Positions 8,683 through 40,769 of a stretch of DNA of 64,000 nt are shown piece by piece; within the stretch, counting starts at the first letter, position 1, and each line of letters starts with the position of its first letter. The DNA comes from Baekduia alba (GTDB taxonomy: Bacteria; Actinomycetota; Thermoleophilia; Solirubrobacterales; Solirubrobacteraceae): positions 5,332,001-5,396,000 of the forward strand of contig NZ_CP114013.1 of the NCBI RefSeq assembly GCF_028416635.1, in the 5' to 3' direction. The notes below the pieces were generated by a model. It was not told the DNA's origin. It ran no database searches and saw only the letters and a program-made list of their open reading frames with translations. Made by a program: the position numbers and the translations under genes.

Positions 8683-9778
8683 CCGCGTCGTAGACCGCCG
8701 CGGTCCGCGCGGCGGTCTGCTCCCACGTGAACGTCGCGGCCTGGGCGCGCGCGGCGGCGGGGTCGATCGCGCCGGAGAGCGCGCGCCCGATCGCGGCCGC
8801 GAACGCCGGCGCGTCGTCCGGATCGACATACAGCGCCTGGTCGGCGCCGATCTCGCGCAGCACCGGCAGGTCGGAGCAGACGACCGGGACGCCGCGCGCC
8901 ATCGCTTCGAGCACCGGCAGGCCGAAGCCCTCGAAGCGCGTCGGCAGCGCGAGCGCGCCGGCGGCCGCATAGAGGTCCTCGAGCAGCTCGCGCGGCACGG
9001 CGCCCAGGACGCGGACGTCGTCGTCCAGCCCGGCGGCGCGCACGCGCGCGGGCAGCGCACCGGCGTCCGTGCCCGGACCCACGTACACCAACAACGGTCG
9101 GTCGTCGCCGGGGAGCGCGCCCCAGACGTCGAGCAGCGCCGGCAGGTTCTTGTGCTGGAAGTCGCCGGCGACGCAGAGCACGATCGGCCGGCCGGCCGCG
9201 CCAACCGCGGCGCGCGCCCGCCCCGCGTCGGCCCCTGCCGACGGCAGCATGCCGAGCGCGAGCGGGATCACCTCGACGCGCTCGGACCGCACGCCGAGCA
9301 GCTCCACCACGTCGGTCGCCGTCGCGTGCGAGTCGGCGATGACGCGGTGCGCGCGCCGCGCGGCCGGCGTCATCAGCGCGTTGGTCCCGACGCGCATCAG
9401 CGGCGGCACGAGCTCGGGCCGGCGCTTGAACAGGACGTCGTGGACGGTGAGGACCCGCGCGAACGGCCCGCCGAGCGCGCCGAAGTTCCCGACGCCGTGC
9501 AGGACGTCGACCCGCGCGCGCCGCCCGGCCCCCGCGATCCCGACCGCCTCGCCGGCGGCCCAGCGCGCGCTCGACCCCGCGGTCACCCACGGCAGCACGA
9601 CGACGCGGTCCAGCAGCTCGCGCCACCACCCGTCGCCCGCGGCGTCGGCGCCGACCAAGCCGACGAGCTCCAGGTCCGGTCGCGCCACGCGCAGCGCCCG
9701 CGCCAGCTCCCGGGCGTAGGCCTCCCGGCCGCCGGTCTGGCCGGGGCGCAGGAACAGCAGGTCCCAGCCGATCCTCAC
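8642..9778 (-). CDS. Family 4 glycosyltransferase
   Basis: A 378-residue GT4 protein beginning VRIGWDLLFLRPGQTGGREAYARELARAL (GTG at 9778), with VLTVHDVLFKRRPELVPP in the acceptor domain and VLCVAGDFQHKNLPALLDVW, ALPTRFEGFGLPVLEAMARG (EX7E) and VPVVCSDLPVLREIG in the donor domain. The layout resembles mannosyltransferase-type GT4 proteins. Its start overlaps the stop of the upstream GT2 gene by four bases (GTGA). It is the last gene of a leftward operon (flippase, small ORF, GT2, DUF2304, GT2, GT4). A longer in-frame start is rejected because it would overlap the coding GT2 gene completely. Confidence 0.85.
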   Translation of the reverse strand: MRIGWDLLFLRPGQTGGREAYARELARALRVARPDLELVGLVGADAAGDGWWRELLDRVVVLPWVTAGSSARWAAGEAVGIAGAGRRARVDVLHGVGNFGALGGPFARVLTVHDVLFKRRPELVPPLMRVGTNALMTPAARRAHRVIADSHATATDVVELLGVRSERVEVIPLALGMLPSAGADAGRARAAVGAAGRPIVLCVAGDFQHKNLPALLDVWGALPGDDRPLLVYVGPGTDAGALPARVRAAGLDDDVRVLGAVPRELLEDLYAAAGALALPTRFEGFGLPVLEAMARGVPVVCSDLPVLREIGADQALYVDPDDAPAFAAAIGRALSGAIDPAAARAQAATFTWEQTAARTAAVYDAVSPRSRARSTAAR

Positions 9779-10800
9779 AGCAGCGCGAGGACGAGCCGCC
9801 AGTAGGAGCCGACGAGCCACTCGGCGCCCGGGATCGCGTGCGCGGTCGCCAGGAACGGCGAGTCCAGCGACGCGGTCAGGCCCGCCGCGAACGTCCGCGC
9901 GTCGACGCGCGCCGTGGCCTGCACCTGCCGTCGCCGGCGGCGCATCGCCGGCAGCTCGCGCAGCCCCGCCCACTGCGCGCGCAGCTTGGCCTTCAGCCAG
10001 CCGTCGCGCGCGGCGACGGGCAGCAGGGCCAGCTCGAAGGCCAGCAGGGCCGGCGCCAACAACACCAACAACCGCGTCGGGTAGTCGCCCGTCAACGTCC
10101 ACCAGCGGTTGCGCTCCAGGTGGAACCACTTGTAGTCGCCCTTGGCGAACTCGTAGTCGTGGTCGACGCGCGCGGCGGGTACGACGCCGCTCTCCCAGCC
10201 CGCGAGCCGCAGCCGCAGGCCGAGGTCCAGGTCCTCGCCGTACATGAAGTAGCGCTCGAAGAAGCCGCCGGTCCGCTCCCACGCCTCGCGGCGGACGACC
10301 AGCGCCGCGCCGGACGCGAACCCGACCGCGCGCGGCGCCGGATCGAGCGTCGCCGTCGCCGTCCCGTGGCCGCCCGCCCAGCCGAAGCCGAGGAAGTGCA
10401 CCAGGTTGCCGGCCGTGTTGACCTCCTGGCCGCCGGGCAGCGCCACGAGCGCCTGCCACGCGCCCCACGTCGGGTGCTCCCCGGCCGCCGCGCGCAGCGC
10501 GTCGAGGCAGCCGGCGGTCGGGACGGCGTCGGGGTTGAGGAACAGCAGCAGGTCGCAGCCGGCCACGGCACGCGCGCCGACCATGGTCCCGCCGGCGAAG
10601 CCGCCGTTGACGCCGGTCTCGATGACGATCGCGTCCGGCAGCACCTCACGGGCCACGCGCGCGCTGTCGTCCGGCGACGCGTTGTCGACGACGACGACCT
10701 GATCGCCCGCGCCCAGCTGCGGCGCCAGCGCCCCGAGCGTGGCCGGCAGGTCGTCCGCGCTGCCGTACGCGACGACGATGACCCCGAGCGTCGGGCTCAC
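9775..10800 (-). CDS. Family 2 glycosyltransferase with C-terminal membrane segment
   Basis: A 341-residue GT2 protein starting at the GTG at 10800 (SPTLGVIVVAYGSADDLPAT). Motifs: VVVVDNASPDDS, the DXD-like LFLNPDAVP, and the acceptor motif FMYGEDLDLGLRLRLAG, as in rhamnosyl/galactofuranosyl-type transferases. After about residue 230 a hydrophobic stretch (RLLVLLAPALLAFELALLPV) suggests membrane attachment. Both ends overlap neighbours by four bases (GTGA), so it is translationally coupled to DUF2304 upstream and GT4 downstream. It probably extends the lipid-linked glycan at the inner membrane face. Confidence 0.85.
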   Translation of the reverse strand: MSPTLGVIVVAYGSADDLPATLGALAPQLGAGDQVVVVDNASPDDSARVAREVLPDAIVIETGVNGGFAGGTMVGARAVAGCDLLLFLNPDAVPTAGCLDALRAAAGEHPTWGAWQALVALPGGQEVNTAGNLVHFLGFGWAGGHGTATATLDPAPRAVGFASGAALVVRREAWERTGGFFERYFMYGEDLDLGLRLRLAGWESGVVPAARVDHDYEFAKGDYKWFHLERNRWWTLTGDYPTRLLVLLAPALLAFELALLPVAARDGWLKAKLRAQWAGLRELPAMRRRRRQVQATARVDARTFAAGLTASLDSPFLATAHAIPGAEWLVGSYWRLVLALL

Positions 10801-37783: not shown

Positions 37784-38935
37784 TTACGCTGCGAAGTCGA
37801 CGTGCACGTGGCGCCCGCGCTCCAGCAGCACGACGCGGCCGGCCTCGCGCAGCGCGAAGAGCGCGGCGCGCTCGGCGGGCGAGAGCTCGGCGTCGCGCGG
37901 CGGCTGGTGGCGCGCCGCGACGTAGCGCCGCTCCAGCGCGAGCGCCTCGGCGTCCAGCGGCGGCGGCGCGATCGAGGCGTCGGCGGACGGCGTCAGGCCG
38001 CGTTCCAGCGCGACGAGGCGGACCAGCGCGTCGTTGGTCGCCCCGTGGCGCTGGGCGTCGGGGTCGAGGACCGTCGCCTCGCCGAGCAGCTCGTCGTCGC
38101 CGAGGCGGCGCAGCTCGACGGTCGCGTTGCGCGCGAGCGCCGGCAGCGGCTCCTCGCAGCGCAGCTGGTGGAAGCGGCCGCCGAGCCAGCCGACGCGCGC
38201 GACCGCCTCGGCGGCGCCGTGGACGACGAGGACGCGCGCGCCGTGCTCCAGGCGCGCGTCGACGGCGACGTCGAGGACCGGGCCGCGCGGCGCGGCGGGC
38301 TCCTCCTCGGCGGGCGCGACGGCGGGCGCCGGCGGCACCGTCCCTTCCACCCACGCGCCCTCCTCGCGCTTCCAGATCGGCGCCTCGGCCTTGATCCGGT
38401 CGATGATCTCCCGCGCGCCGGCGAAGGCCTCGGGCCGGTGCGGCGCGCTGGCGGCGACCAGCACCGACGCCTCGCCCAGCGGCACGCGGCCGTAGCGGTG
38501 GTCGGCGGCTGCGGCGCACAGGCCGTGGCGCGCGACCGCCTCGGCGACGATCGCGTCGATCTTCGCCGCGGCCATCTCGGCGTAGGCCTCGTAGTCCAGG
38601 AACTCCACGTCGCGCGTGGTCCCGCTGAAGGTGACGACCGCGCCGGCGCGGGGATCGGCGACCCGCGCCGCGACCGCGTCGAGCGACAGCGGCCCGTCGA
38701 GCACCGCGCCGCCGCTGACGGGCGGGACGACCGCCAGCTCGTCGCCGGCGTTCAACACCATGTCGACATCGGCGTACTCGCGGTTGACGGCCAGCACGAG
38801 CGACACGCCCGGGGCGAGGTGCTGGACCTGGGCCAGCGCGTCGGCCACGCGGGCGCCGTCGGGGAGGTCGAGCTCCAGCTCGTCCCGACCCGCGCGCTCC
38901 CGCAACCCCGCGAACAGCCTGACGCTGACCTTCAC
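37784..38935 (-). CDS. MoaD-MoaE fusion with SelB-like C-terminal region
   Basis: A 383-residue fusion. Residues 1-76 are MoaD (VSVRLFAGLRERAGRDELEL) and end in the thiocarboxylate-type Gly-Gly in PPVSGG. Residues about 80-200 are MoaE, with GAVVTFSGTTRDVEFLDYEA, YGRVPLGEASVLVAASAPHR and the catalytic Lys region IKAEAPIWKREEG. MoaD and MoaE form molybdopterin synthase, which inserts the dithiolene sulfurs. After an acidic Pro-rich linker, residues about 218-300 (ARVLVVHGAAEAVARVGWLG, RFHQLRCEEPLPALARNATV, GEATVLDPDAQRHG) resemble the post-G-domain beta barrel of SelB, and 345-383 (LSPAERAALFALREAGRVVL) a winged helix. If MoaD is not cleaved, the Gly-Gly is internal, which is odd for a sulfur carrier. 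Confidence 0.85.
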   Translation of the reverse strand: MKVSVRLFAGLRERAGRDELELDLPDGARVADALAQVQHLAPGVSLVLAVNREYADVDMVLNAGDELAVVPPVSGGAVLDGPLSLDAVAARVADPRAGAVVTFSGTTRDVEFLDYEAYAEMAAAKIDAIVAEAVARHGLCAAAADHRYGRVPLGEASVLVAASAPHRPEAFAGAREIIDRIKAEAPIWKREEGAWVEGTVPPAPAVAPAEEEPAAPRGPVLDVAVDARLEHGARVLVVHGAAEAVARVGWLGGRFHQLRCEEPLPALARNATVELRRLGDDELLGEATVLDPDAQRHGATNDALVRLVALERGLTPSADASIAPPPLDAEALALERRYVAARHQPPRDAELSPAERAALFALREAGRVVLLERGRHVHVDFAA

Positions 38936-39149: not shown

Positions 39150-40769
39150 ATGGCGACGACTCCTGCAGAGGAGCGCTTGACGGTCGCGCCCATCGTGGGC
39201 CCCGACGACCCCCGGCGCTTCACCGACTCCGGCATCGAGATCAAGCAGCTCTACACCGCTGACGACCTCCCCGACAAGCTGGAGCTCGGCGAGCCGGGCG
39301 AGTTCCCCTACATCCGCGGCCCGCACCGCGAGATGTACCGCAAGCAGTTCTGGACGATGCGCCAGTACGCGGGCTACGCGAGCGCCAAGGAGTCCAACGA
39401 GCGCTACCGCTACCTGCTCAGTAAGGGCGGCACCGGGCTGTCGATGGCCTTCGACCTCCCGACGCAGCTCGGCCTGGACTCCGACAACCCGCGCTGCCTC
39501 GGCGAGGTCGGCCGCACCGGCGTCGCGATCGACACGATCGACGACATGCGCACGGCCTTCGACGGCATCCCGCTGGACCAGGTCTCGACGTCGATGACGA
39601 TCAACGCGCCCGCCGCGTGCCTGATGCTGCTCTACGAGCTGGTCGGCGAGGAGCAGGGCGTCCCGTCCCAGCAGCTGCGCGGCACCACGCAGAACGACGT
39701 GCTCAAGGAGTACATCGCGCGCGGCAACTACATCTACCCGCCCGTGCCGACGATGCGGCTCACGACCGACCTGTTCGCCTACTGCAAGGAGAACATCCCG
39801 AAGTGGAACACGGTGTCCATCTCGGGCTACCACTTCCGCGAGAAGGGCTGCTCCGCCGTCCAGGAGGTCGCGTTCACGCTGTCGAGCGGCATCGCCTACG
39901 TGCAGGCCGCGGTCGACGCGGGCCTGGCGGTCGACGACTTCGCCCCGCGCCTGGCGTTCTTCTTCAACGGCCACAACAACGTCTTCCAGGAGGTCGCGAA
40001 GTTCCGCGCCGCCCGGCGGATGTGGGCGCACATCATGCGCGACCGCTTCGGGGCCAAGAACCCCAAGTCGATGATGCTCCGCTTCCACACGCAGACCGGC
40101 GGCGTGACGCTGACCGCCCAGCAGCCGGAGAACAACATCGCGCGCGTCGCGCTGCAGGGCTTCGCGGCCGTGGCCGGCGGGACGCAGTCGCTGCACACCA
40201 ACGGCTACGACGAGGCGCTGGCGCTCCCGACCGAGCGCGCGGCCAAGATCGCGGTCCGCACGCAGCAGATCATCGCCCACGAGTCGGGCGCCACCGACAC
40301 CGTCGACCCGTTCGCCGGGTCCTACTTCGTCGAGGCGCTGACCGAGGAGATCGAGTCGCGCGCCCAGGAGCTGATCGCCAAGGTCGACGAGCTCGGCGGC
40401 TCGGTCAACGCGATCGAGTTCATCACCGGCGAGATCGACGAGTCGGCGTGGGGCTACCAGGAGCGCTACCGCCTCGGCCAGGACATCGTCGTCGGCGTCA
40501 ACAAGTACGAAGAGGACGAGATCGAGGTCCCGGACCTCCTGCGCGTCGACCCGGAGTCCGAGAACCAGCAGGTCGGACGCCTCAAGGCGTTCAAGGAGAA
40601 CCGCGACCAGGCGGTCGTCGACGCCCGCCTCGAGGAGCTGCGCGGCGCCGCCCGCGGCACCGACAACCTGCTGCCCGCCATCAAGGACGCGCTGCGCGAC
40701 CGCGCGTCGCTCGGCGAGGTCTGCGGCGCGATGCAGGACGTCTTCGGCAAGTACCAGCCCACGTTCTGA
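39150..40769 (+). CDS. Methylmalonyl-CoA mutase large subunit (catalytic domain only)
   Basis: A 539-residue acyl-CoA mutase barrel domain. [20 protein letters not shown] carries the Tyr that in methylmalonyl-CoA mutase contacts the substrate carboxylate, and [20 protein letters not shown] the matching Arg; isobutyryl-CoA mutases have Phe and Gln there, so methylmalonyl-CoA is the likely substrate. [60 protein letters not shown] and [20 protein letters not shown] are family blocks. The cobalamin-binding domain (DxHxxG) is absent, so a separate B12 subunit must be encoded elsewhere. It interconverts methylmalonyl-CoA and succinyl-CoA. The DUF2269 gene's ATG overlaps its stop (TGATG). Confidence 0.92.

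What the first reader, a model, noticed from the sequence alone, without database searches (positions are those of the whole stretch)
37784..38935. MoaD-MoaE fused to a SelB-like beta barrel and winged helix
One polypeptide contains the sulfur carrier MoaD, the MoaE catalytic subunit and a C-terminal region resembling post-GTPase domains of the selenocysteine elongation factor SelB. MoaD's Gly-Gly is internal unless cleaved. A link between molybdopterin synthesis and a SelB-like RNA/ribosome-binding module is unexpected; formate dehydrogenases use both cofactors. I know of MoaD-MoaE fusions in actinobacteria but not of this third part.
Basis: partly seen in the sequence, partly recalled or inferred. 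Interest (0 to 1): 0.75.

Follow-up and report, generated by a model that had tools for sequence, protein, structure and literature searches.

The report
Molybdopterin synthase with SelB-derived tail
A bacterium's only recognisable molybdopterin synthase gene carries a tail derived from the selenocysteine elongation factor SelB, apparently left when a neighbouring selB gene was truncated and fused to it, and the tail is still kept by selection.

Summary
ORF 37784-38935(-) encodes MoaD, MoaE, a linker, a SelB-type domain III barrel and one winged helix. Similarity is to SelB rather than to any EF-Tu barrel: Pfam Beta-barrel_SelB is just above its cut-off, a profile finds E. coli SelB and no EF-Tu, and the predicted fold's top two hits are bacterial SelBs.

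The origin is largely explained. A recurring layout in the same order is moaX-selA-selB near methylmalonyl-CoA mutase. In this genus (four genomes readable at this locus) selA and the front of selB are absent from that place. The back of selB is fused in frame to moaX in three genomes and free-standing in the fourth. A complete Sec set (selA, selB, selD, tRNA-Sec, formate dehydrogenase with in-frame TGA) lies elsewhere in the window's genome.

The tail lacks the GTPase domain, domain II and the last winged helix, and two segments kept in 32 of 32 SelBs examined, so it is unlikely to do SelB's job. Yet it is under purifying selection, while the linker is not detectably so. The gene holds the genome's only MoaE match.

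Best reading: a working MPT synthase, cleaved after Gly76, whose SelB remnant was kept as a non-translational accessory domain; partner unknown.

The parts
37784..38935 (-). whole fusion gene, 383 aa plus stop: MoaD-MoaE-linker-SelB III-winged helix
   Evidence: same gene in G138 and G144
38708..38935 (-). MoaD (ThiS family), residues 1-76, ending in Gly75-Gly76 (codons 38708-38713)
   Evidence: Pfam ThiS 5-76; Gly75 and Gly76 invariant in 28 MoaX rows
38342..38707 (-). MoaE, residues 77-198
   Evidence: Pfam MoaE 81-184; R108, H166, R167 and K182 invariant and K189 nearly so in 28 rows; the only MoaE match in the genome
38288..38341 (-). Ala/Pro-rich linker, residues 199-216, no detectable constraint
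38048..38287 (-). SelB domain III beta barrel, residues 217-296
   Evidence: Pfam PF25461; AF2 model of the tail, mean pLDDT 89.6, Foldseek top hits SelB
37952..38047 (-). helix and variable spacer, residues 297-328
37787..37951 (-). winged helix, residues 329-383, aligned to the penultimate winged helix of SelB; the last one is absent
39150..40769 (+). methylmalonyl-CoA mutase gene (TIGR00641, PF01642), divergent neighbour that marks the locus in relatives
   Evidence: families; found in the held stretch of 29 of 42 moaX-bearing loci taken by place and 33 of 80 named loci

Best explanation
The gene is a MoaX-type molybdopterin synthase that gained a tail when the neighbouring gene selB was truncated. 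Shown: many relatives carry moaX-selA-selB, mostly near the same mutase gene; in the four genomes of this genus readable at the locus, selA and the SelB GTPase and domain II are absent there; a SelB domain III plus one winged helix is joined in frame to moaX in three of them; a full Sec set sits elsewhere in the window's genome; the tail is under purifying selection. Inferred: the order of events; that the protein is cleaved after Gly76, giving MoaD with a free Gly-Gly end and a MoaE-SelB-tail subunit, which together make molybdopterin for this genome's Mo/W enzymes, including the formate dehydrogenase with the in-frame TGA. Inferred, least certain: the tail no longer takes part in decoding and is kept as a folded accessory domain of MoaE, for stability, assembly or docking of a partner protein.
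For: Layout: moaX, selA, selB in this order on one strand in 17 of 60 loci taken by place (L046-L050, L053, L055, L082-L084, L086-L088, L097, L106, L109, L110; 42 of the 60 hold moaX; loci were chosen for their matches, so this is not a rate) and in 8 of 80 named loci (L126, L133, L145, L146, L152, L162, L170, L171), five of which are the same loci as five of the 17 (recounted). The mutase gene lies in the held stretch of 14 of the 17 and 8 of the 8. The fusion tails and the free G005 fragment form a clade (98/86) beside the operon SelB of G152 (96/77), apart from the genome's own SelB clade. Selection: GY94 omega 0.143 for residues 217-383 (2dlnL 81.4 against omega 1), 0.04 for MoaD and MoaE, 1.1 for the linker, 0.075 for true SelB 256-430 of the same genomes; 0 of 1000 neutral simulations reach the observed identity of the tail in each of three pairs, while the linker fits neutrality. 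Fold: tail pLDDT 89.6, Foldseek top two are bacterial SelB. One MoaE match in the genome; one Prok-JAB/JAMM match. Segments HHGT[RA] and [DGQ]T[LI][GA]G: in 32 of 32 SelBs, 0 of 5 moaX-linked derivatives (patterns drawn from the same alignment).
Against: The accessory role itself has no direct evidence, and no partner is known. NG86, which ignores codon bias, gives dN/dS 0.47-0.65 for the tail. Raw codon-position differences in the tail are only mildly skewed to position 3 (20/18/31 for G000-G138) against 14/13/48 for MoaD plus MoaE, and GC3 is 98.8% in the tail, so omega values are model-dependent. Only three genomes carry the complete fusion. The G005 fragment and the G103 form match the SelB barrel family below its cut-off (19.7 and 24.5 bits, cut-off 27), and both have long branches (2.42 and 1.47), so their places in the tree are unsure.
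Confidence: 0.6

Rival explanations
1. The tail still serves the selenium machinery: it binds RNA (tRNA-Sec, the formate dehydrogenase mRNA) or the ribosome and couples cofactor supply to selenoprotein synthesis.
For: Operon-like link moaX-selA-selB in relatives; formate dehydrogenase with in-frame TGA close to the Sec genes; domain III and one winged helix retained under selection.
Against: No GTPase domain, domain II or last winged helix; HHGT[RA] and [DGQ]T[LI][GA]G lost in all five moaX-linked derivatives. Net charge of the fused tails (barrel -3 to -4, winged helix -3 to +1) is not basic, but neither is that of the 32 SelBs over the same columns, so charge does not decide.
Confidence: 0.15
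2. The tail is a passenger: a selB remnant that happens to be in frame, harmless, and fused recently, so that decay has not yet shown.
For: It is a truncated and motif-poor SelB; its omega is about 3.6 times that of MoaE and 1.9 times that of true SelB 256-430; the linker drifts.
Against: Identity of the tail exceeds every neutral simulation in all three pairs (0 of 1000 each); omega 0.143 with omega 1 strongly rejected; no stop or frameshift in three genomes. Constraint only against misfolding of MoaE cannot be excluded as the cause.
Confidence: 0.22
3. Artefact: two separate genes joined by a sequencing or assembly error, or a generic EF-Tu-like barrel misread as SelB.
For: The barrel alone scores about as well against eIF2-gamma and EF-Tu as against archaeal SelB in VIA-align (Z about 10 each).
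Against: Same fusion in three separate assemblies; the sequence profile finds E. coli SelB at 2.5e-7 and no EF-Tu chain up to E 1; among the 50 rows shown only the two bacterial SelBs match both domains.
Confidence: 0.03

Closest known systems
MoaX, fused MoaD-MoaE molybdopterin synthase of Mycobacterium tuberculosis (PMC4326299, abstract read) and Deinococcus DR2607 (PMC8832034, passages read)
   Same: MoaD-GlyGly-MoaE in one chain; conserved Gly-Gly at the junction; conserved MoaE residues
   Different: No further domain is mentioned in what I read of those; here a SelB domain III and a winged helix follow MoaE
Bacterial SelB (selenocysteine-specific elongation factor), PDB 5lzb chain z (E. 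coli, species recalled) and 4zu9
   Same: Domain III barrel and one winged helix by sequence profile and predicted fold
   Different: No GTPase domain, domain II or last winged helix; two segments found in 32 of 32 SelBs lost
aSelBL, archaeal SelB duplicate with disrupted G domain and unknown function (PMC4342817, passages read)
   Same: A SelB-derived protein whose GTPase part is disrupted but which persists
   Different: Archaeal, keeps the G domain in damaged form, no fusion to a cofactor synthase mentioned in the passages

Membership tests
MoaX (fused MPT synthase) | ThiS/MoaD domain followed by MoaE domain in one frame | tested here: met
   Pfam ThiS 5-76 and MoaE 81-184, both over cut-off
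MoaX (fused MPT synthase) | Gly-Gly at the MoaD end | tested here: met
   Gly75-Gly76, invariant in 28 rows
MoaX (fused MPT synthase) | Conserved MoaE residues (His-Arg pair, two Lys; catalytic roles recalled) | tested here: met
   H166, R167, K182 invariant, K189 nearly invariant in 28 rows
MoaX (fused MPT synthase) | Cleavage after Gly-Gly is needed for activity | not testable with these tools
   One Prok-JAB gene exists in the genome; no protein data
SelB elongation factor | GTPase domain (GTP_EFTU) | tested here: not met
   No match in the fusion up to E 1; own SelB matches at 7.6e-31
SelB elongation factor | Domain III beta barrel | tested here: met
   PF25461 28 bits, cut-off 27; 31.3 bits for the tail alone
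SelB elongation factor | Last winged helix (Pfam SelB-wing_3) | tested here: not met
   No match in the fusion up to E 1; present in own SelB at 450-493 and in G152 SelB at 433-477
SelB elongation factor | Segments HHGT[RA] and [DGQ]T[LI][GA]G in domain III (defined here from 32 SelBs of the order) | tested here: not met
   32 of 32 SelBs, 0 of 5 moaX-linked derivatives
SelB elongation factor | Binding of Sec-tRNA and SECIS RNA | not testable with these tools
   needs a binding assay

The most novel reading that the evidence does not exclude
SelB's domain III has been recruited into molybdopterin synthase as a permanent subunit domain. Three different rearrangements next to moaX in one family (fusion with domain III plus winged helix; free domain III plus C-terminal part in G005; a GTPase-altered I-II-III form overlapping moaX in G103) have domain III in common. 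This suggests that domain III itself acts on or with MoaE, perhaps to hand molybdopterin to, or match its supply with, the Sec-formate dehydrogenase.
Probability: 0.25. Interest if true: 0.7.

Novelty: new variant of a known kind. Interest (0 to 1): 0.5.

Why it matters
It points to an apparent operon of two unrelated pathways (molybdopterin and selenocysteine) collapsing into one gene, and to a translation-factor domain surviving under selection outside its old protein. If the tail has a role in MoaE, it would be a new kind of regulatory or assembly domain on molybdopterin synthase and a physical link between the two systems that a Sec-formate dehydrogenase needs.

Tried and rejected
Generic EF-Tu barrel: rejected on sequence. 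Profile A3 against PDB chains gives four matches up to E 1: E. coli SelB 2.5e-7, initiation factor 2 gamma 0.15, an unrelated endopeptidase-related protein 0.17, SelB 4zu9 0.26; no EF-Tu. On fold alone the barrel does not discriminate.

Descent of the tail from the genome's present selB: rejected by the tree; identity to it is 39%.

One mixed alignment of MoaX and SelB rows (A2) was misaligned, SelB rows lying on MoaX, and was not used for modelling. The full-length model (A4) has pLDDT 72.5, pTM 0.48 and low confidence in the tail because no SelB rows were in it; I draw nothing from it on domain packing.

An Rfam search of the short selB locus L002 found nothing; the tRNA-Sec gene lies outside that locus. 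I first took the ORF between moaX and the SelB fragment in G005 for an SMP-30-like gene; the family scans do not bear that out (no match), and I withdraw the name.

Literature searches for a MoaD/MoaE-SelB link or fusion. One search listed one paper, a Moco history (PMC9370521, listing only); one search listed none; in the listings I saw no report of this fusion. PMC5322559 (passages) has no occurrence of 'moa'.

Rows dropped: SelB matches of 250 residues or fewer after the match start (L081, cut by a contig end; the fused loci entered separately). Before the tree, eight more (L133, L145, L170, L171, L053 as duplicates of kept rows; L114 as a distant GTPase, L097 and L098 as frame-broken or garbled). 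The same eight were left out of the 32; L098 shows both segments by eye, L097 neither.

Full report
What is there. Window 37784-38935, minus strand, is a 383-codon ORF from GTG. Pfam finds ThiS/MoaD at 5-76, MoaE at 81-184 and the SelB beta-barrel family PF25461 at 222-295, the last just over its cut-off and at 31.3 bits when the tail is scanned alone. In the same genome the only other match of the protein is a SelB gene, 39% identical over residues 217-378. The window lies in a 5.86 Mb single-contig genome. The closest named relatives of its moaX are Solirubrobacterales, among them Conexibacter and Solirubrobacter; I did not name the species.

The third part is SelB, not merely EF-Tu-like. 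A profile of the tail with six operon SelB C-terminal parts finds E. coli SelB among PDB sequences at 2.5e-7, initiation factor 2 gamma at 0.15, an unrelated protein at 0.17 and a second SelB (4zu9) at 0.26; no EF-Tu chain appears up to E 1. AlphaFold2 on the tail with that alignment gives mean pLDDT 89.6: six strands, then helices and a winged helix. Foldseek ranks the E. coli (7.3e-7) and the other bacterial SelB 4zu9 (5.3e-6) first, then domain III of eIF2-gamma; rows named EF-Tu come from about 1.1e-2. In VIA-align the two SelBs have Z 12.6 with 156-161 aligned residues over both domains. Their rmsd of 19-20 means the two domains are placed differently or the arrangement is uncertain. The other rows shown cover the barrel only, Z about 10, and there EF-Tu, eIF2-gamma and archaeal SelB do not differ.

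What is missing. The fusion has no match to a GTPase domain, to domain II or to the last winged helix (Pfam SelB-wing_3), which own SelB and the G152 SelB have. The alignment shows that the tail stops after the penultimate winged helix. Two segments of domain III, HHGT[RA] and [DGQ]T[LI][GA]G, are in 32 of 32 SelBs examined but in 0 of 5 moaX-linked derivatives: three fusions, the G005 fragment and the G103 form. The patterns were drawn from that same alignment. Domain IV, made of winged helices, recognises the SECIS element in SelB (PMC8124441, passage read); that the last winged helix is the main contact is recalled.

Where it came from. In many genomes of the order, moaX, selA and selB follow each other on one strand: 17 of 60 loci fetched by place (42 of the 60 hold moaX) and 8 of 80 named loci, with the mutase gene in the held stretch of 14 of 17 and 8 of 8 (recounted). 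Five of the eight are the same loci as five of the 17. The loci taken by place were picked for their matches, so these are examples, not frequencies. Of the 80 named loci, 68 show no selA or selB match in the stretch held, two end inside selA (L130, L136), and two have one sel gene farther off (L167, L196); many stretches are short. Within the genus, G138 and G144 have the same fusion, 86% and 78% identical. G005 has moaX, then an ORF without a Pfam or NCBIfam match, then a free SelB C-terminal fragment without a GTPase domain; the fragment matches the SelB barrel family at 19.7 bits, below the cut-off of 27. Among 232 genomes of the order, 3 of 232 give a full-length match. A fourth of the genus, G153, has the first 188 residues at one contig edge and 28 residues near the tail end at another contig edge, consistent with a fourth fusion but not proof. 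G150 and G154, drafts of 81% and 65% completeness, gave no match at that threshold and none to the tail. In G103, another genus, moaX overlaps a SelB-like gene with a weak GTPase match (33 bits against 108 for own SelB), a barrel match below cut-off (24.5 bits) and no winged helices.

The tree of SelB C-terminal parts (37 rows, 245 columns) groups the three fusions and the G005 fragment (98/86), next to the operon SelB of G152 (96/77), and away from the genome's own SelB, which groups with those of G138, G144, G005 and G042 (100/99). Caveats: midpoint root, long branches of G005 (2.42), G023 and G103, and the three fusions together only 92/43. The simplest history is loss of selA and of the front half of the old operon selB, with in-frame joining of its back half to moaX, while a second Sec locus does the decoding. 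That locus, at C1:896000-912000, holds selA, selB and selD, all over NCBIfam cut-offs, tRNA-Sec (73.9 bits, cut-off 47) and a formate dehydrogenase frame with one in-frame TGA, over cut-off as formate dehydrogenase-N alpha subunit when the TGA is read as Sec.

Is the tail kept? In the three fusions a codon model (GY94, F3x4, star tree) gives omega 0.04 for MoaD and MoaE, 1.1 for the linker (16 codons), 0.143 for residues 217-383 (2dlnL 81.4 against omega 1), and 0.075 for true SelB 256-430 of the same genomes. The simpler NG86 method gives 0.47-0.65 for the tail and 0.17-0.25 for MoaD and MoaE; it ignores codon bias, and GC3 is about 98%. Differences by codon position are 20/18/31 in the tail for G000-G138, 34/35/54 and 29/37/60 for the other pairs, so only mildly skewed. 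A simulation with the observed number and spectrum of base changes placed at random gives lower protein identity than observed in 1000 of 1000 runs for the whole tail in each of three pairs. The linker fits neutrality in all three (202, 853 and 867 of 1000 runs at or above the observed identity). The barrel alone in G000-G138 is reached by 3 of 1000. So the tail is constrained, less than MoaE and less than real SelB.

How it most likely works. The gene holds the only MoaE match of the genome (four ThiS-family matches, one of them this gene), and conserved MoaE residues and the Gly-Gly are intact, so it should be the working MPT synthase. By analogy with M. tuberculosis MoaX, which must be cleaved between Gly82 and Ser83 (PMC4326299, abstract), and Deinococcus, where a JAMM protease makes the cut (PMC8832034, passages), it is likely cut after Gly76. 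The genome has one Prok-JAB match, about 1.8 kb from another ThiS-family gene. Cleavage would leave the SelB tail on MoaE. That the tail is a non-translational accessory domain is inference from what it lacks and from its being kept.

Comparison. As MoaX it is a member with an added part; as SelB it is not a member. A parallel of a SelB-derived protein with a disrupted GTPase domain is archaeal aSelBL (PMC4342817, passages). Searches of the paper library listed no report of this fusion, within open-licence papers only.

Noticed in passing
L046-L050, L053, L055, L082-L084, L086-L088, L097, L106, L109, L110; L126, L133, L145, L146, L152, L162, L170, L171: A recurring moaX-selA-selB gene order, mostly near a methylmalonyl-CoA mutase gene, across two families of the order: molybdopterin synthesis and selenocysteine decoding in one apparent operon.
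   Followed up: partly
L045 9042-10109 (+), genome G103: SelB-like gene overlapping the stop of moaX, with an altered GTPase domain (DLPGSV and TRCD where own SelB has DVPGHE and TKAD; 33 bits to GTP_EFTU), weak domain II and III matches, no winged helices.
   Followed up: partly
L044 9644-11316 (+), genome G005: Between moaX and a free SelB C-terminal fragment lies an ORF (9644-10609) that starts right after the moaX stop and has no Pfam match up to 1e-5 or NCBIfam match up to 1e-10; the three genes are tightly spaced.
   Followed up: partly
window 38606-38614 (MoaE, residues 108-110): MoaE is about six residues shorter after Arg108 than the mycobacterial MoaE structures; the short form is shared by the rows of this order, while five rows from other groups (L175, L179, L182, L191, L195) have the longer one.
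   Followed up: no
L051/L052 (G063) and L085 (G227): In two genomes of genus g15 the mutase-linked locus keeps selA and selB without moaX, with about 2.7 kb between the two sel genes; in G063 moaX sits on another contig.
   Followed up: no
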